From: a virus | DNA length: 21,683 nucleotides | Strand: one strand, 5' to 3' | Virus record (IMG/VR): IMGVR_UViG_3300007734_000463 | Span: 1 to 21,683 of that record | Shown here: positions 1,262 to 5,779 of the stretch, piece by piece | Position numbering within the stretch: the stretch's first letter is position 1 | How the letters are laid out: each line of letters begins with the position of its first letter | Program-made: the position numbers and the translations under genes | The notes under the pieces: model-generated | The model's database searches: none | What the model saw: the letters and a program-made list of their open reading frames with translations, nothing else | What the model was told of the DNA's origin: nothing

Positions 1262-1447
1262 CTACTCACTACCACCGTAACTGATAAACTGCTCGTCTAA
1301 CCTACCCTTTTCATTGAGCGCATCACAGATAGTATGTGCCTGTTCCTGACTGGAACACTCAGCAATACCTAGGTATAGGTCGAACGGATCTTCGCAAATC
1401 AGTACGAAATAAGACTCACCAATCAACGCAACAATAGCATTAGTCAT
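1262..1447 (-). CDS. Hypothetical protein, 61 aa
   Basis: Product MTNAIVALIGESYFVLICED continues with a mixed alpha/beta pattern and ends QFISYGGSE. GAGGAAG stands four bases before the ATG, and the start overlaps the TAA of the preceding 61-aa gene. It is the last gene of the first leftward unit before the promoter gap. The SSQEQAHTICDALNE segment resembles the helix of small phage proteins that pair a short sheet with one helix, but no family can be named. Confidence 0.65.
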   Translation of the reverse strand: MTNAIVALIGESYFVLICEDPFDLYLGIAECSSQEQAHTICDALNEKGRLDEQFISYGGSE

Positions 1448-2514: not shown

Positions 2515-2702
2515 TATACTTCCTCGATTTCTACTTTAGTAACATTACCAACACCAACACTCGTATAATCCAGATAATAAGACTCAATACCATCCAAACC
2601 TACCATAGTAATACCCTCATCAATAGCAGAAAGCAAACTACTACTAACAACCCTAGCAGTAATACTAACCGGAACAGTAAAGGTAACATAATAAGCATCC
2701 AT
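2514..2702 (-). CDS. Hypothetical protein, 62 aa
   Basis: Product MDAYYVTFTVPVSITARVVS then SSLLSAIDEGITMVG; alternating hydrophobic residues suggest a small beta-alpha-beta fold. TTGGAG is five bases before the ATG, and the start overlaps the TAA of the upstream gene (TAATG). The ends of this and several neighbouring small proteins are similar in style (...VEIEEV, ...HEYEEV), which may reflect distant relatedness of these small early proteins (weak inference). No family recognised. Confidence 0.65.
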   Translation of the reverse strand: MDAYYVTFTVPVSITARVVSSSLLSAIDEGITMVGLDGIESYYLDYTSVGVGNVTKVEIEEV

Positions 2703-2911
2703 TATAACTCCAATCCATAAGTAGGAAACGAATCATCACTAGCCTCATCACAATAAGTATACCAGTCAGACAAATGCTCAGCATAAAACTCATCAGGTAC
2801 ACGGTAATCCTCAAACGTACTACGCTCAACCTCATCAGTATCAGCCCAATAAGCCTCAGTCACATCATCCAACATACGATCATAAGCCAGATCACTCAGA
2901 TCATTCACCAT
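2702..2911 (-). CDS. Acidic hypothetical protein, 69 aa
   Basis: Product begins MVNDLSDLAYDRMLDDVTEA and is very rich in Asp, Glu, Tyr and Trp. A longer open frame runs upstream to 3007 but passes through structured hairpin A; the ATG at 2911 is chosen because AAAGGAGG ends five bases before it, directly after the hairpin. High negative charge and small size are typical of DNA-mimic inhibitors as well as of many unrelated phage proteins, so function is open. Its neighbour upstream is ArdC. Confidence 0.7.
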   Translation of the reverse strand: MVNDLSDLAYDRMLDDVTEAYWADTDEVERSTFEDYRVPDEFYAEHLSDWYTYCDEASDDSFPTYGLEL

Positions 2912-2926
2912 TCCAACCTCCTTTAT

Positions 2927-2974
2927 CTCTCTATATAAATACTCTTCACTTCGTTCAGAGTATTTATTAGAGAG
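2927..2974 (-). promoter_or_regulatory. Structured RNA hairpin, copy A (leader of 69-aa gene)
   Basis: Sense-strand reading: outer stem CTCTCTA/TAGAGAG (7 bp), one unpaired A on the 3' side, middle stem ATAAATACTCT/AGAGTATTTAT (11 bp), and loop GAACGAAGTGA. The loop can close further as a tandem G-A pair plus AC/GU around a GAA triloop. TATATA precedes the element, and ATAAAGGAGG, the ribosome site, follows at once. Copies B and C share loop, outer stem and bulged A but have different, compensated middle stems. It lies between ardC and the 69-aa gene. Confidence 0.85.
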
Positions 2975-2993
2975 TATATAATCAGCAGCCTCT

Positions 2994-3920
2994 TTACGCA
3001 ACTGCATAAGTGTTCTCCATAATCATATCAGCAGCGTAACTAGCAGCGTTAGCCGCAGAGAACAGCAACTTAGGCTCATCCTTACAACGCTTAGCCCATG
3101 CCTTCAGGTAAGCAGCAGACTGAGAATCATCAAGTGGGACACCAGTATTAGCACACATAAACGCGGAAGCAAACTCAGCAATCAATTCTTCTTTCGCATA
3201 GTTATCACCAGTAACACGGGCTTCTCCTCCTCTATCACTATTATCTAGCCGATTAGTACGAGACTTGTGACCAGTACTATGCGCCATTTCGTGAAACATA
3301 GTATGGTAGTACGCTTCTAGCGACTCGAACTGGTCAAGGTCAGGCATCTCAATACGATCAAGATCAGAAATATAACATGCACGATCACCACCATGATGCA
3401 GCCCACCACCTAGAATATCACACCACTCAGTAGAGATAAGATCAGCCTCAGGATACCCATTATCCTCATGATCATAACCCTCAACCTCTACCTCAGGCAA
3501 CTCGAAGGTATCAAGACCATCAATCTGCGAGCCGTTAAAAACCCTGTAGTAGCGCTGAAACCACGAAGTCTTAGTCTCAACCTCACCCGTAGACTCATCC
3601 TCAACGTCACGCTTAGTAGCCTTATTGTAGATGACGATGGTGGACTTGCTACCCTTCTTCACCTGCATACCTTCATCAAGGCTGTTCATTGTGTAGAATC
3701 GTGGATCATTCCAACCATTCTGCTCAACGAGAAAGGACAGGTACATGCTGTTAAACCCTGTGTATACACGGTTACTGACACCATTACGAGGCATCATCGC
3801 ATCATTCCTACCACGAACAATCCATGGCTTAGACCATGGTGCCACACCAGATTCCATCAAGGCAATCAAACCTTCGGTAATCTCAGCGTGAACCTCTGCA
3901 ATGTCAAACTTTTTCTTCAT
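2994..3920 (-). CDS. ardC: ArdC-type antirestriction protein (zincin-like)
   Basis: 308-aa protein with the two-part ArdC layout: an N-terminal ssDNA-binding domain (about 1-140, with WSKPWIVRGRNDAMMPRNG and YTGFNSMYL motifs) and a C-terminal metallopeptidase-like domain. The zinc site is HEMAH at 210-214 with KEELIAE (244-249) supplying the likely third ligand, followed by a FASAF helix. ArdC proteins from plasmids and phages bind single-stranded DNA and protect incoming DNA from restriction. Length is normal and the catalytic residues are intact. The ATG at 3920 follows AAAGGGG, itself directly after hairpin B; hairpin A follows the stop. The gene is thus bracketed by two copies of the same RNA element. 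Confidence 0.92.
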   Translation of the reverse strand: MKKKFDIAEVHAEITEGLIALMESGVAPWSKPWIVRGRNDAMMPRNGVSNRVYTGFNSMYLSFLVEQNGWNDPRFYTMNSLDEGMQVKKGSKSTIVIYNKATKRDVEDESTGEVETKTSWFQRYYRVFNGSQIDGLDTFELPEVEVEGYDHEDNGYPEADLISTEWCDILGGGLHHGGDRACYISDLDRIEMPDLDQFESLEAYYHTMFHEMAHSTGHKSRTNRLDNSDRGGEARVTGDNYAKEELIAEFASAFMCANTGVPLDDSQSAAYLKAWAKRCKDEPKLLFSAANAASYAADMIMENTYAVA

Positions 3921-3935
3921 TTTGTTCCCCTTTAT

Positions 3936-3983
3936 CTCTCTATATAATTACTCTTCACTTCGTTCAGAGTAATTATTAGAGAG
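3936..3983 (-). promoter_or_regulatory. Structured RNA hairpin, copy B (leader of ardC)
   Basis: Same architecture as copies A and C: outer stem CTCTCTA/TAGAGAG, bulged A, middle stem ATAATTACTCT/AGAGTAATTAT, loop GAACGAAGTGA, then ATAAAGGGG as the ardC ribosome site. Relative to copy A, the middle-stem differences on one arm are matched on the other, so pairing is preserved. The tandem TAA stops of the 68-aa gene (3978-3973) fall in its 5' arm, so ribosomes finishing that gene would reach the outer stem. Confidence 0.85.
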
Positions 3984-4182
3984 TATATACCGTTGCCGAA
4001 TTGACTTCTTGCACATGCGCTACATCATTCCAATCGTAACCCATGCCCTGCACATAATCCATAAGATCCTCTACAAAACCAGCCTCTTGTGCTACATACT
4101 CATACGATTCCAATGCCCAATAGTCAGCATGACTAAGCACATCATCATTCCACTCAATAACATACAACATATCTTCGTTCAT
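3976..4182 (-). CDS. Acidic hypothetical protein, 68 aa
   Basis: Product begins MNEDMLYVIEWNDDVLSHAD and is rich in acidic and aromatic residues, like the 66- and 69-aa neighbours. The ATG at 4182 is chosen because AAAGGG is seven bases upstream; longer readings to 4242 lack a ribosome site. That ribosome site lies within a small triloop hairpin (4190-4202). The last codons and stop are inside hairpin B of ardC. No family recognised. Confidence 0.65.
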   Translation of the reverse strand: MNEDMLYVIEWNDDVLSHADYWALESYEYVAQEAGFVEDLMDYVQGMGYDWNDVAHVQEVNSATVYTL

Positions 4183-4189
4183 TCTACAG

Positions 4190-4233
4190 CCCTTTCTAAG
4201 GGAGATAATAGGTACCCATGTGGGGTAGCCTAT
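4190..4233 (-). promoter_or_regulatory. Two leader hairpins; the proximal one contains the ribosome site
   Basis: On the sense (minus) strand CCCTT-AGA-AAGGG (4202-4190) forms a 5-bp triloop hairpin whose 3' arm is the AAAGGG ribosome site of the 68-aa gene. Just upstream, 4233-4208 forms ATAGG/CCTAT plus TACCC/GGGTA with one bulged C and a CACAT loop. Together they occupy much of the 102-bp gap before this gene. Occlusion of the ribosome site is inferred from pairing only. Confidence 0.55.
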
Positions 4234-4284
4234 GTGACACACACAAACGCCTTAGGAGCCTCTACAGACCCCTTAGAATCGACG

Positions 4285-4485
4285 CTACCTACGTACCTGA
4301 GCCTCTTGCAAAGCAACATCAGCATTATGATGAGCCAAAGCATTCCAACTAGCATCATGGAAGTCTTCCCACTCACTCACAAACTCATCACTATCATCGT
4401 GAGGATTCACATACCACACCTCATAGAAACCATTATTACCGTCAATGATATGGTAATCTCCGATTACCCTACATGTAGCAAACAT
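4285..4485 (-). CDS. Acidic hypothetical protein, 66 aa
   Basis: Product begins MFATCRVIGDYHIIDGNNGF and continues YEVWYVNPHDDSDEF, an acidic, aromatic-rich sequence. The ATG at 4485 overlaps the TAA of the upstream 82-aa gene (TAATG); GGAAAGG is about nine bases upstream. A GTG three codons earlier is an alternative start. Composition resembles the 68- and 69-aa proteins. No family recognised. Confidence 0.6.
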   Translation of the reverse strand: MFATCRVIGDYHIIDGNNGFYEVWYVNPHDDSDEFVSEWEDFHDASWNALAHHNADVALQEAQVRR

Positions 4486-4733
4486 TATGCACACACCTTT
4501 CCATCCCGATCATCACCGGGCATCCGACTACTAGTTGGCAGTCCTTTAGGACTCACAATATCCGTAACATGACGCTTACCACGCTTAGCATAACCCCTAC
4601 CAGTAGCAGCAAACTGAGCAGCCACCTTCACACTATGCACATCATCGTACACGATCACATCATATACACGATCCCCAATGACCGCGACGCGCGTCTCGCG
4701 GATTACGCGGTTTTGTTTACGAGCCTTACGCAT
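4485..4733 (-). CDS. Basic hypothetical protein, 82 aa
   Basis: Product begins MRKARKQNRVIRETRVAVIG and is Arg/Lys-rich at both ends around a short beta-like core (RVYDVIVYDDVHSVKVAAQF). Charge suggests nucleic-acid binding (inference). The ATG at 4733 follows AAGGA by six bases. The ribosome site is inside a perfect 6-bp triloop hairpin (4738-4752). It follows the zinc-ribbon gene and overlaps the start of the 66-aa gene. No family recognised. Confidence 0.65.
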   Translation of the reverse strand: MRKARKQNRVIRETRVAVIGDRVYDVIVYDDVHSVKVAAQFAATGRGYAKRGKRHVTDIVSPKGLPTSSRMPGDDRDGKVCA

Positions 4734-4737
4734 ATAG

Positions 4738-4752
4738 ATTCCTTTCAGGAAT
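4738..4752 (-). promoter_or_regulatory. Triloop hairpin masking the ribosome site of the 82-aa gene
   Basis: Sense-strand ATTCCT-GAA-AGGAAT is a perfect 6-bp stem with a GAA triloop. The AAGGAAT 3' side is the ribosome site for the ATG at 4733, so folding would hide it. The GAA loop matches the loops tiling the gene just upstream. Confidence 0.6.
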
Positions 4753-4777
4753 GGACACGAACAGGGAGTTTAGCACA

Positions 4778-5200
4778 CTTGACTCTACGAGTCAAGCCGT
4801 ACCTTACGAGAGACTTTCACACGAGTCCCACCGACAACAACACTTACAGTGTTGTGACCCTTCTTGCCTTGCCGACCAACGATAGTAACAGAGTTACTAT
4901 CCGACGTAGCCAAAGCAACGTAGCAAACTTTGCAAATGCCTTCGGCATTGACTCGGTAATGCTTTTTGGCAAAGCCACAGCAACGGCACTTGACTTTTTT
5001 GACGGCAACCTTCGGTTCCACAATCTCCTCCTTCGGAGCAACAGTCTCATCGTCTTCGACGATCTTCACACCAACCTCATCTTCGATGAGGTCATCCAAC
5101 TCAACACCTTCGGTGTTCTCCATCAGTTCTTCGAACTGAGCCAACTCCTTCGGAGAAAGATTCTCCAACCATTCTTCGAATGCCAACTCAACTTCGTTGA
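4778..5200 (-). repeat. Series of ~15 small triloop hairpins inside the zinc-ribbon gene
   Basis: Perfect stems with 3-nt loops lie at 4778-4796 (8 bp), 4837-4855 (8), 4881-4901 (9), 4923-4933 (4), 4935-4949 (6), 4967-4977 (4), 5007-5017 (4), 5028-5038 (4), 5049-5063 (6), 5074-5092 (8), 5103-5117 (6), 5123-5139 (7), 5145-5155 (4; alternative 5152-5166, 6), 5170-5182 (5) and 5188-5200 (5). Ten loops read C-GAA-G in the sense strand. Stem sequences differ, so the constant is the shape and loop. GAA is in frame as Glu in seven cases and out of frame (Pro-Lys codons) in three. The TAG stop (4787-4785) lies partly in the loop of the first listed hairpin. Confidence 0.85.
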
Positions 5201-5216
5201 TGCTTCGGTTCAACAT
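4785..5216 (-). CDS. Zinc-ribbon protein with acidic N-terminus, 143 aa
   Basis: First gene of the leftward early unit. Residues 1-70 are acidic and helical (FEEWLENLSPKELAQFEELM, then Asp/Glu/Val-rich). Residues 77-98 hold CRCCGF...GICKVC (Cys77, 79, 80, 95, 98), a zinc-ribbon/knuckle. The C-terminus is basic (VKVSRKVRL). A charge-split protein with a zinc ribbon suggests nucleic-acid or polymerase binding (inference); no named family. AAGGAG precedes the ATG at 5216 by seven bases, directly after hairpin C. Its DNA is tiled by small triloop hairpins, and the repeated E-G, E-D, K-E residue pairs look partly dictated by them. Confidence 0.75.
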   Translation of the reverse strand: MLNRSINEVELAFEEWLENLSPKELAQFEELMENTEGVELDDLIEDEVGVKIVEDDETVAPKEEIVEPKVAVKKVKCRCCGFAKKHYRVNAEGICKVCYVALATSDSNSVTIVGRQGKKGHNTVSVVVGGTRVKVSRKVRLDS

Positions 5217-5232
5217 TTTCGGTCTCCTTTAT

Positions 5233-5280
5233 CTCTCTATATAAAATATCTTCACTTCGTTCAGATATTTTATTAGAGAG
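5233..5280 (-). promoter_or_regulatory. Structured RNA hairpin, copy C (leader of zinc-ribbon gene)
   Basis: Sense strand: CTCTCTA/TAGAGAG outer stem, bulged A, middle stem ATAAAATATCT/AGATATTTTAT, loop GAACGAAGTGA, followed by ATAAAGGAG as ribosome site. Four middle-stem positions differ from copy A and/or B and every change is compensated. Total length, 48 nt, is identical in all three copies, and TATATA precedes each. Confidence 0.85.
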
Positions 5281-5297
5281 TATATAAATCTCAGCCA

Positions 5298-5670
5298 GAC
5301 CATCTTCGATGGTCAACGTGTATCTCAACGAAGTTGAGACAAAAATAGTATCGTAGATACTAAAAACCATATCGAAGATATGACCAACAAACCAACATAA
5401 ACAAAACTTATATTACTCTGTAATATAAGACTATCACTACCTAAAGGTAGTGATAGAAGTAGTAATATCAATAGATATTACTATAATGTTTTGGTACTAA
5501 AACATTTTACAAACTTTGTTTGTAAAGAATTATTCTATTATATATAATAATAAGGGAACCTTATTATATATATATATAGTCCTCATCCAAAAATGTACGA
5601 CCCTCAACGTATACACCCTCTAAGAGAGGGTATATACGAAATCCACAAACCTCAGGCTTCACAAAGTGAA
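5298..5670. repeat. Non-coding array of about 12 tandem hairpins
   Basis: No gene here. Consecutive perfect stems: 5298-5314 (7 bp, TTC loop), 5323-5339 (7, GAA), 5346-5362 (7, GTA), 5368-5382 (6, GAA), 5407-5429 (10, TCT), 5431-5456 (11, TAAA), 5460-5483 (10, AATA), 5485-5506 (8, six-base loop), 5507-5525 (8, TTT), 5547-5567 (9, GAA), 5608-5638 (6+7 bp around one mismatch, AAG) and 5658-5670 (5, AAA). A self-complementary AT stretch (5536-5549) lies between. Stems share no sequence. Many abut with 1-10 bases between, so the region folds as a string of hairpins on either strand. It continues the hairpin series of the adjacent coding gene. Confidence 0.85.
5563..5590 (-). promoter_or_regulatory. 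Candidate leftward early promoter
   Basis: Minus-strand TTGGAT (5590-5585), 16-base spacer, TATAAT (5568-5563). The -10 is a perfect match but sits in an alternating AT tract; the -35 matches only TTG. If real, transcription starts near 5556 and gives a leader of about 340 nt carrying most of the hairpin array and hairpin C before the zinc-ribbon gene. Confidence 0.35.
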
Positions 5671-5779
5671 TACCAATACCCATCCCCCCTTTTACATACC
5701 CACACATATATATAATTACACTATTTGTATTTTTGGTTATTTTGTGTTTATAACTTATGTTGGGGGTTTTGTTTATTAT

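What the first reader, a model, noticed from the sequence alone, without database searches (positions are those of the whole stretch)
2927..5280. Three-copy 48-nt RNA element with compensatory base changes before leftward ribosome sites
Hairpins at 2927-2974, 3936-3983 and 5233-5280 have the same length, loop (GAACGAAGTGA), outer stem and bulged A. Their 11-bp middle stems differ (AAATACTCT, AATTACTCT, AAAATATCT on the 5' side) and every change is matched on the opposite arm; at least four positions covary. That is evidence for selection on RNA or cruciform structure, not on primary sequence. The loop can fold into tandem G-A pairs and an AC/GU pair capped by GAA. Each copy is directly before AAAGG(A/G)G of a gene (69-aa, ardC, zinc-ribbon). 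Roles by analogy: RNase III processing sites between early genes (as in T7), 5' stabilisers or a trans-acting protein's binding site. This could be a new cis-regulatory RNA family.
Basis: partly seen in the sequence, partly recalled or inferred. Interest (0 to 1): 0.85.

Follow-up and report, generated by a model that had tools for sequence, protein, structure and literature searches.

The report
Conserved-cap RNA hairpin in phage operons
The three look-alike hairpins in front of early phage genes belong to an undescribed, widespread family: many unrelated environmental phages carry 2-5 copies each, with quite different but perfectly matched stems under one nearly fixed loop, which points to a shared but still unknown way of controlling phage messenger RNA.

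Summary
The three 48-nt copies are at the stated coordinates on the minus strand, just before AAAGG(A/G)G ribosome sites. Further copies occur in many IMG/VR phages. In a loop-selected alignment of 34 distinct inner hairpins, 373 of 374 cells pair, 117 are changed on both sides and none on one side only. Counting more broadly gives 104 distinct elements on 129 contigs, 52 with at least two distinct copies.

The cap reads (C/T)-GA-AC-RNA-GU-GA-(A/G): tandem G·A pairs, two base pairs and a purine-N-A triloop. Scans with free positions support it. Nearest-neighbour stability does not explain it, so recognition is likely.

Elements sit 5' of ORFs, in the sense direction, in at least three phage lineages. 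In the window lineage the upstream stop codon lies in or just before the 5' arm. Nothing in Rfam 15 matches; a literature search for the loop string found nothing relevant.

Best model, mostly inferred: an intercistronic mRNA processing or 5'-protection hairpin recognised through its cap. Unexplained: no G·U pair in 438 inner-stem cells; a DNA-level role is not excluded.

The parts
2927..2974 (-). Element copy 1 (type A); helix extends to 2924-2978; loop 2946-2956
3936..3983 (-). Element copy 2 (type A); helix extends to 3933-3987; loop 3955-3965; stop codon of the upstream ORF (3976-3978) lies in its 5' arm
5233..5280 (-). Element copy 3 (type A); helix extends to 5230-5284; loop 5252-5262; no upstream ORF, part of the operon leader
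2702..2911 (-). 69-aa ORF behind copy 1
   Evidence: no Pfam match
2994..3920 (-). ArdC-type anti-restriction protein behind copy 2
   Evidence: PF08401 and PF18818, phrog_7245
4785..5216 (-). Zn-ribbon ORF behind copy 3, first gene of the operon; basic C-terminal part conserved in relatives; candidate RNA-binding protein
   Evidence: AlphaFold pLDDT 74, no fold match
3976..4182 (-). ORF whose stop codon lies inside the 5' arm of copy 2
5290..5680 (-). Operon leader with an array of small perfect hairpins, conserved as an array in relatives

Best explanation
The element is a cis-acting hairpin of phage early mRNAs. It sits between cistrons (or in the leader) immediately 5' of a gene. It has a long paired stem (about 18-27 bp, usually with one fixed bulge or mismatch) and an almost invariant cap, (C/T)-GA-AC-RNA-GU-GA-(A/G). 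Shown: structure under selection, cap conserved independently of the stem, sense orientation, several copies per phage, same layout in unrelated phages. Inferred: the cap is recognised by a protein, either a widely conserved host factor or a phage product, and the duplex serves to cut or to block ribonucleases at that point, so that each early gene behind it gets its own defined, protected 5' end and accessible ribosome site, in the manner of the RNase III sites of T7 or the CUUCGG stabiliser of T4 gene 32. When ribosomes run to the upstream stop codon inside the 5' arm the hairpin cannot form, so its action would be tied to upstream translation.
For: Covariation in three alignments. Cap invariant on unrelated stems; triloop purine-N-A in 58 of 59 in a scan with a free triloop; invariance not explained by nearest-neighbour energy. 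Same-strand ORF start behind 52 of 65 distinct elements in multi-copy contigs against 10 on the other strand, similar. Intercistronic position with the upstream stop in or just before the 5' arm. Genes behind a given element are exchanged while the element stays. About 20-bp irregular duplex, as in known RNase III targets (minimum about 22 nt). Precedent for one loop on variable stems between phage genes: CUUCGG hairpins, including the stabilising 5' leader of T4 gene 32 (PMC8948821). Spacing to the Shine-Dalgarno differs between lineages, which speaks against direct occlusion as the common function.
Against: No expression, cleavage or binding data exist. RNase III does not need a conserved apical loop (general knowledge), so the cap must have another reader. 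No G-U pair among 438 inner-stem cells is odd for an RNA helix. No shared phage protein that could read the cap was found across lineages.
Confidence: 0.4

Rival explanations
1. Translational operator regulon: a phage-encoded protein (in the window lineage perhaps the Zn-ribbon product, itself behind copy 3) binds the cap and represses or activates translation of the genes that carry the element, including its own, like T4 gp43, phage coat proteins or Mu Com.
For: Invariant non-canonical cap, several target genes per genome, fixed 34-35 nt from loop to ATG in the window lineage, Shine-Dalgarno adjacent (type A) or inside the 3' arm (type B). The Zn-ribbon protein is conserved and basic. T4 gp43 precedent: operator hairpin about 40 bases upstream (PMC3014915).
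Against: Distance to the ribosome site varies between lineages. The Zn-ribbon is not shared by lineages C and D. Its predicted fold matches no known RNA-binding protein.
Confidence: 0.22
2. DNA-level hairpin: the palindrome acts as extruded single-stranded or cruciform DNA (hairpin promoter, replication or recombination signal) and not as RNA.
For: No G-U pairs in 438 inner-stem cells and no one-sided changes. C-GNA-G loops are known from N4 hairpin promoters, where a sheared G:A pair stabilises the loop (PMC4496689). The operon leader is full of perfect small palindromes.
Against: Position just 5' of ORFs, sense orientation, and a fixed distance to the ATG in the window lineage. In N4 the GGA loop is on the template strand with a 5-7 bp stem; here the loop is on the mRNA-sense strand of a roughly 20-bp stem. 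No single-subunit RNA polymerase found (the control was uninformative). No conserved flank that could be an initiation region.
Confidence: 0.15
3. Cap-independent hyperstable hairpin: the element is only a rugged barrier to exonucleases, and the cap is conserved because it is unusually stable, like C(UUCG)G.
For: Tandem sheared G-A and GNA-type loops can be more stable than simple models say (general knowledge). Long perfect stems in all copies.
Against: Nearest-neighbour energies give no advantage: 7214 of 20000 random loops are at least as stable and simple Watson-Crick substitutes gain 6-8 kcal/mol. No other stable loop (UUCG, GNRA) replaces it in these positions in the loci seen.
Confidence: 0.12
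4. Mutational or selfish palindrome: REP-like hairpins kept perfect by template switching, without function for the phage.
For: Absence of G-U pairs. Loop flips among the small leader hairpins. Short-stem REP-like relatives such as TCATTCTGAACGAAGTGAAGAATC occur in other contigs.
Against: Fixed bulges and an A-G mismatch persist while flanking pairs change. Location 5' of ORFs and orientation are not random. Almost absent from cellular genomes in the tested form (9 hits).
Confidence: 0.08

Closest known systems
CUUCGG hairpins of T4 and other phages (e.g. T4 gene 32 leader)
   Same: One conserved loop on variable stems, mostly intergenic, in phage mRNA; one case stabilises the mRNA (PMC8948821)
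   Different: Other cap (tandem G-A plus purine-N-A triloop, 11 nt instead of UUCG); much longer stems with fixed bulges; consistently 5' of ORFs
RNase III processing sites of T7 early mRNA and the lambda N leader
   Same: About 20-bp irregular duplex between or before early genes, next to ribosome sites
   Different: Those have no conserved apical loop (general knowledge); cleavage here untested
Start-associated sequences and extended inverted repeats (SAS/ESAS) of cluster K and EF phages, inverted repeats of clusters O and EG
   Same: Several copies per genome just upstream of start codons of non-structural genes; lineage C also has a palindromic ribosome site
   Different: ESAS authors report no support for RNA pairing (PMC3203893); here stems covary. 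TM4 lacks the cap
N4 virion RNA polymerase hairpin promoters
   Same: C-GNA-G loop before early genes, variable stem bases allowed
   Different: DNA hairpin of 5-7 bp on the template strand; here about 20 bp, loop on the sense strand, no such polymerase found
Translational operators with a conserved loop (T4 gp43, phage coat proteins)
   Same: Conserved loop, variable stem, near the ribosome site
   Different: No cognate regulator identified; several genes and unrelated phages share one cap

Membership tests
Any Rfam 15 family | Score at or above a family's gathering threshold | tested here: not met
   only tRNAs in L026; in the window only chance-level scores
RNase III processing site | Duplex of about 20 bp or more in the transcript | tested here: met
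   predicted fold and covariation
RNase III processing site | Cleavage by RNase III | not testable with these tools
   no host or RNA data
CUUCGG-type hairpin | C(UUCG)G loop | tested here: not met
   loop is GAAC-RNA-GUGA
SAS/ESAS (cluster K) | 13-bp GGGATAGGAGCCC-like sequence and 17-bp inverted repeats that do not pair as RNA | tested here: not met
   sequence differs; arms pair and covary
N4 vRNAP hairpin promoter | 5-7 bp hairpin with GNA-type loop on the template strand | tested here: not met
   loop on the mRNA-sense strand, long stem
N4 vRNAP hairpin promoter | Cognate single-subunit RNA polymerase in the phage | tested here: inconclusive
   none found but records may be incomplete and the control did not ring
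Sigma-70 promoter (TATACT as -10) | -35 element 16-18 nt upstream of TATACT, above chance | tested here: not met
   10 promoter-like sites against 10.3 expected, none using TATACT; no conserved upstream sequence
Protein-binding translational operator | Conserved loop near the ribosome site | tested here: met
Protein-binding translational operator | Cognate protein binds and changes translation | not testable with these tools
   candidate only (Zn-ribbon)
HK022 put-type antiterminator RNA | Two adjacent stem-loops at the start of early transcripts acting on RNA polymerase | not tested
   the elements here are single hairpins, mostly intercistronic; resemblance from memory only

The most novel reading that the evidence does not exclude
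A single class of RNA punctuation mark, shared by unrelated phages whose genes differ even in ribosome-site type (with and without Shine-Dalgarno), is read through its tandem G-A / purine-N-A cap by one conserved factor that processes or licenses each early cistron: a general phage post-transcriptional system not known from model phages.
Probability: 0.3. Interest if true: 0.88.

Novelty: new variant of a known kind. Interest (0 to 1): 0.73.

Why it matters
It is a compact, clearly bounded family of structured elements with strong covariation, present in many uncultivated phages and absent from Rfam. It gives a ready covariance model, a defined cap to use as bait for the unknown reader, and a way to ask whether phages of different hosts use a common post-transcriptional signal. 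The lack of G-U pairs is itself a sharp puzzle that separates RNA-level, DNA-level and mutational explanations.

Tried and rejected
Isolate phages: blastn with the element gave only chance matches (the Salmonella phage Munch match lies in a CDS and lacks the loop). Regions around short-stem copies in other contigs: no useful match. Cellular genomes: type A pattern 0 hits; a generic stem version 9 hits, one of them a 23-bp copy before an ATG in a Verrucomicrobiia MAG. The host could not be assigned. T7-like RNA polymerase: none found, but the control was uninformative. The very large ORFs as N4-type polymerase: no Pfam, PHROG or PDB match to one. A Zn-ribbon shared by all lineages: not found. 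The AlphaFold model of the Zn-ribbon gave no fold match. Antisense copy of the loop elsewhere in the window: none. Promoter reading of TATACT: no -35, not above chance. Literature: the loop strings occur only in unrelated contexts; other searches found no description.
Full report
CHECK OF THE OBSERVATION. The window is a 21,683-base IMG/VR virus record. The three 48-nt elements are exactly where reported, on the minus strand, with the same outer stem (CTCTCTA/TAGAGAG), bulged A and loop GAACGAAGTGA, and with middle stems that differ at four positions, all compensated. They fold with z-scores of -5.2, -6.1 and -5.4. The helix continues for three more pairs below a second bulged A (TAT/ATA), which accounts for the conserved TATA upstream and ATA downstream. 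The genes behind them are a 69-aa ORF, an ArdC-type anti-restriction protein and a Zn-ribbon protein.

RELATIVES. A scan for the 15-nt cap, and then for outer stem plus cap with the middle stem left free, found the element in other phages. In the window lineage (type A) the copies carry ten different middle stems. In 16 distinct sequences 99.4% of cells pair, 44 cells are changed on both sides and none on one side only, while slid registers pair in 38-61% of cells. A second form (type B: GGTTTATAT..ATAGAAACC, bulged A on the 5' side, conserved A-G mismatch) stands before the orthologue of the same Zn-ribbon gene and also covaries (46 both-sided cells, 100% paired; the only one-sided changes are three U-G at the outermost pair). 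One record (L180) has changed even the outer stem, to CCCTCTA/TAGAGGG.

OTHER LINEAGES. A separate phage lineage (C: G018, G020, G029, G030, G031, L054) carries up to 4-5 copies per record, about 50-69 nt before the ATG, followed by a palindromic ribosome site such as GCAC-GGGAG-GTGC. Another (D: G023, G024 and many records) carries 3-5 copies before ORFs without an obvious Shine-Dalgarno. A and C share only remote portal, capsid and terminase similarity; A and D share a DUF7178 protein. Over all of these, an alignment of 34 distinct inner hairpins chosen by the loop has 373 of 374 cells paired, 117 both-sided changes and no one-sided change. In the loci fetched I counted 104 distinct elements on 129 contigs, 52 contigs with at least two distinct copies and 22 with at least three. 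These numbers depend on my cut-offs, some overlapping loci may come from one record, and two scans were truncated.

THE CAP. With the triloop left free, 59 distinct sequences give GTA 30, GAA 13, ATA 6, AGA 4, AAA 3, GCA 1, ACA 1, GTC 1: purine-N-A in 58 of 59. With the two flanking dinucleotides left free, GA/GA prevails among hairpins with real stems. The pair between them is almost always A-U, but G-C (L399) and C-G (L030) occur. The pair outside the tandem G-A is always pyrimidine-purine in the 34-sequence alignment. This fits tandem sheared G-A pairs, a two-pair stem and a GNA-like triloop. Nearest-neighbour energies give the cap no advantage: 36% of random 11-nt loops fold at least as well and Watson-Crick replacements gain 6-8 kcal/mol. 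Its invariance on ever-changing stems is better explained by recognition than by stability, with the caveat that these energy parameters may undervalue special non-canonical motifs.

POSITION AND STRAND. The loop has the sense of the gene behind it. An ORF start follows within 20-90 nt on the same strand only in 33, on both strands in 7, on the opposite strand only in 2, and on neither in 11 of 53 elements. In multi-copy contigs it is 52 against 10 of 65. In the window lineage the second element has the stop codon of the upstream ORF in its 5' arm (13 nt before the loop, nine of ten cases), and the third has it 37-40 nt before the loop (eight cases). They are therefore intercistronic, and no promoter is apparent: sigma-70-like sites are not above chance. 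The gene behind an element differs between relatives while the element stays.

WHAT IT MOST LIKELY DOES. Irregular duplexes of about 20 bp between early cistrons, next to ribosome sites, resemble RNase III processing sites and 5' stabilisers (T7, lambda N; T4 gene 32 CUUCGG). The spacing to the Shine-Dalgarno varies between lineages, so occlusion of the ribosome site is not the common denominator. I favour a processing or protection element whose cap is read by a protein (0.4). A translational operator for a phage protein comes next (0.22): the Zn-ribbon of the window lineage is a candidate but is not shared by the other lineages.

WHAT DOES NOT FIT. Not one G-U pair occurs in 438 inner-stem cells of multi-copy contigs, although wobble pairs were allowed, and one search has no one-sided cell. 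In a wider, unfiltered set that includes short-stem repeats there are 37 of 738. Absence of wobble pairs is unexpected for an RNA helix with so many compensatory changes. It could mean a DNA-level constraint, a very strict duplex reader, or stems renewed as perfect palindromes by template switching. The fixed bulges and the A-G mismatch argue against the last, and the sense orientation and position against the first; neither is excluded. N4 polymerase hairpins share the C-GNA-G loop but carry it on the template strand with a short stem.

SURROUNDINGS. The leader and the first gene of the same operon form an array of small perfect hairpins: 18 in window 4501-5400 against 2.4 in shuffles. The array recurs in the type A/B relatives examined and in lineage D, whose first gene encodes a different, basic protein but is equally full of palindromes. 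Between the window and L125, stems change together and some loops flip to their reverse complement. In the leaders GNA and its complement are equally frequent (11 against 9); in the first genes GNA dominates (36 against 4), where codon content may contribute.

KNOWN OR NEW. No Rfam 15 family matches, and the loop string is not described in the open papers searched. Start-associated inverted repeats of cluster K, EF, EG and O phages are the nearest described arrangement, but for cluster K the authors found little support for RNA pairing (PMC3203893, PMC7302621). I file it as a new variant of a known kind: a phage intercistronic mRNA hairpin with a new, apparently recognised cap.

Noticed in passing
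window 4780-5680 (minus); also L265, L262, L258, L031, L130, L129, L128, L273, L267: Operon leader and first gene packed with small perfect hairpins (18 in 900 nt against 2.4 expected); in relatives stems co-change and triloops flip to their reverse complement. The array recurs in an unrelated lineage with a different first protein.
   Followed up: partly
[quoted passage not shown]
   Followed up: partly
L045, L052, L060, L063, L081, L087, L098, L152: The same cap on short stems, followed by short pyrimidine-rich direct repeats (CTGTATCTGTATCTG, CTTCCCTTCCC), in contigs that include isolate genomes; no gene start behind it; function unknown.
   Followed up: partly
L009, L020, L035, L036, L039, L051, L278: REP-like repeats of the form TCATTCTGAACGAAGTGAAGAATC share the cap, with an A-U to G-C exchange in it in some copies.
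   Followed up: no
L277 near 1394-1414 (minus): A Verrucomicrobiia MAG carries a 23-bp-stem copy with GTA triloop just before an ATG, possibly a prophage.
   Followed up: partly
L269:1121-13549 (minus); L266:1389-9956: Lineage C phages encode single ORFs of 4142 and 2855 aa without clear family matches.
   Followed up: partly
L034: The contig looks like an inverted duplication (every hit mirrored on both strands), probably an assembly artefact.
   Followed up: no
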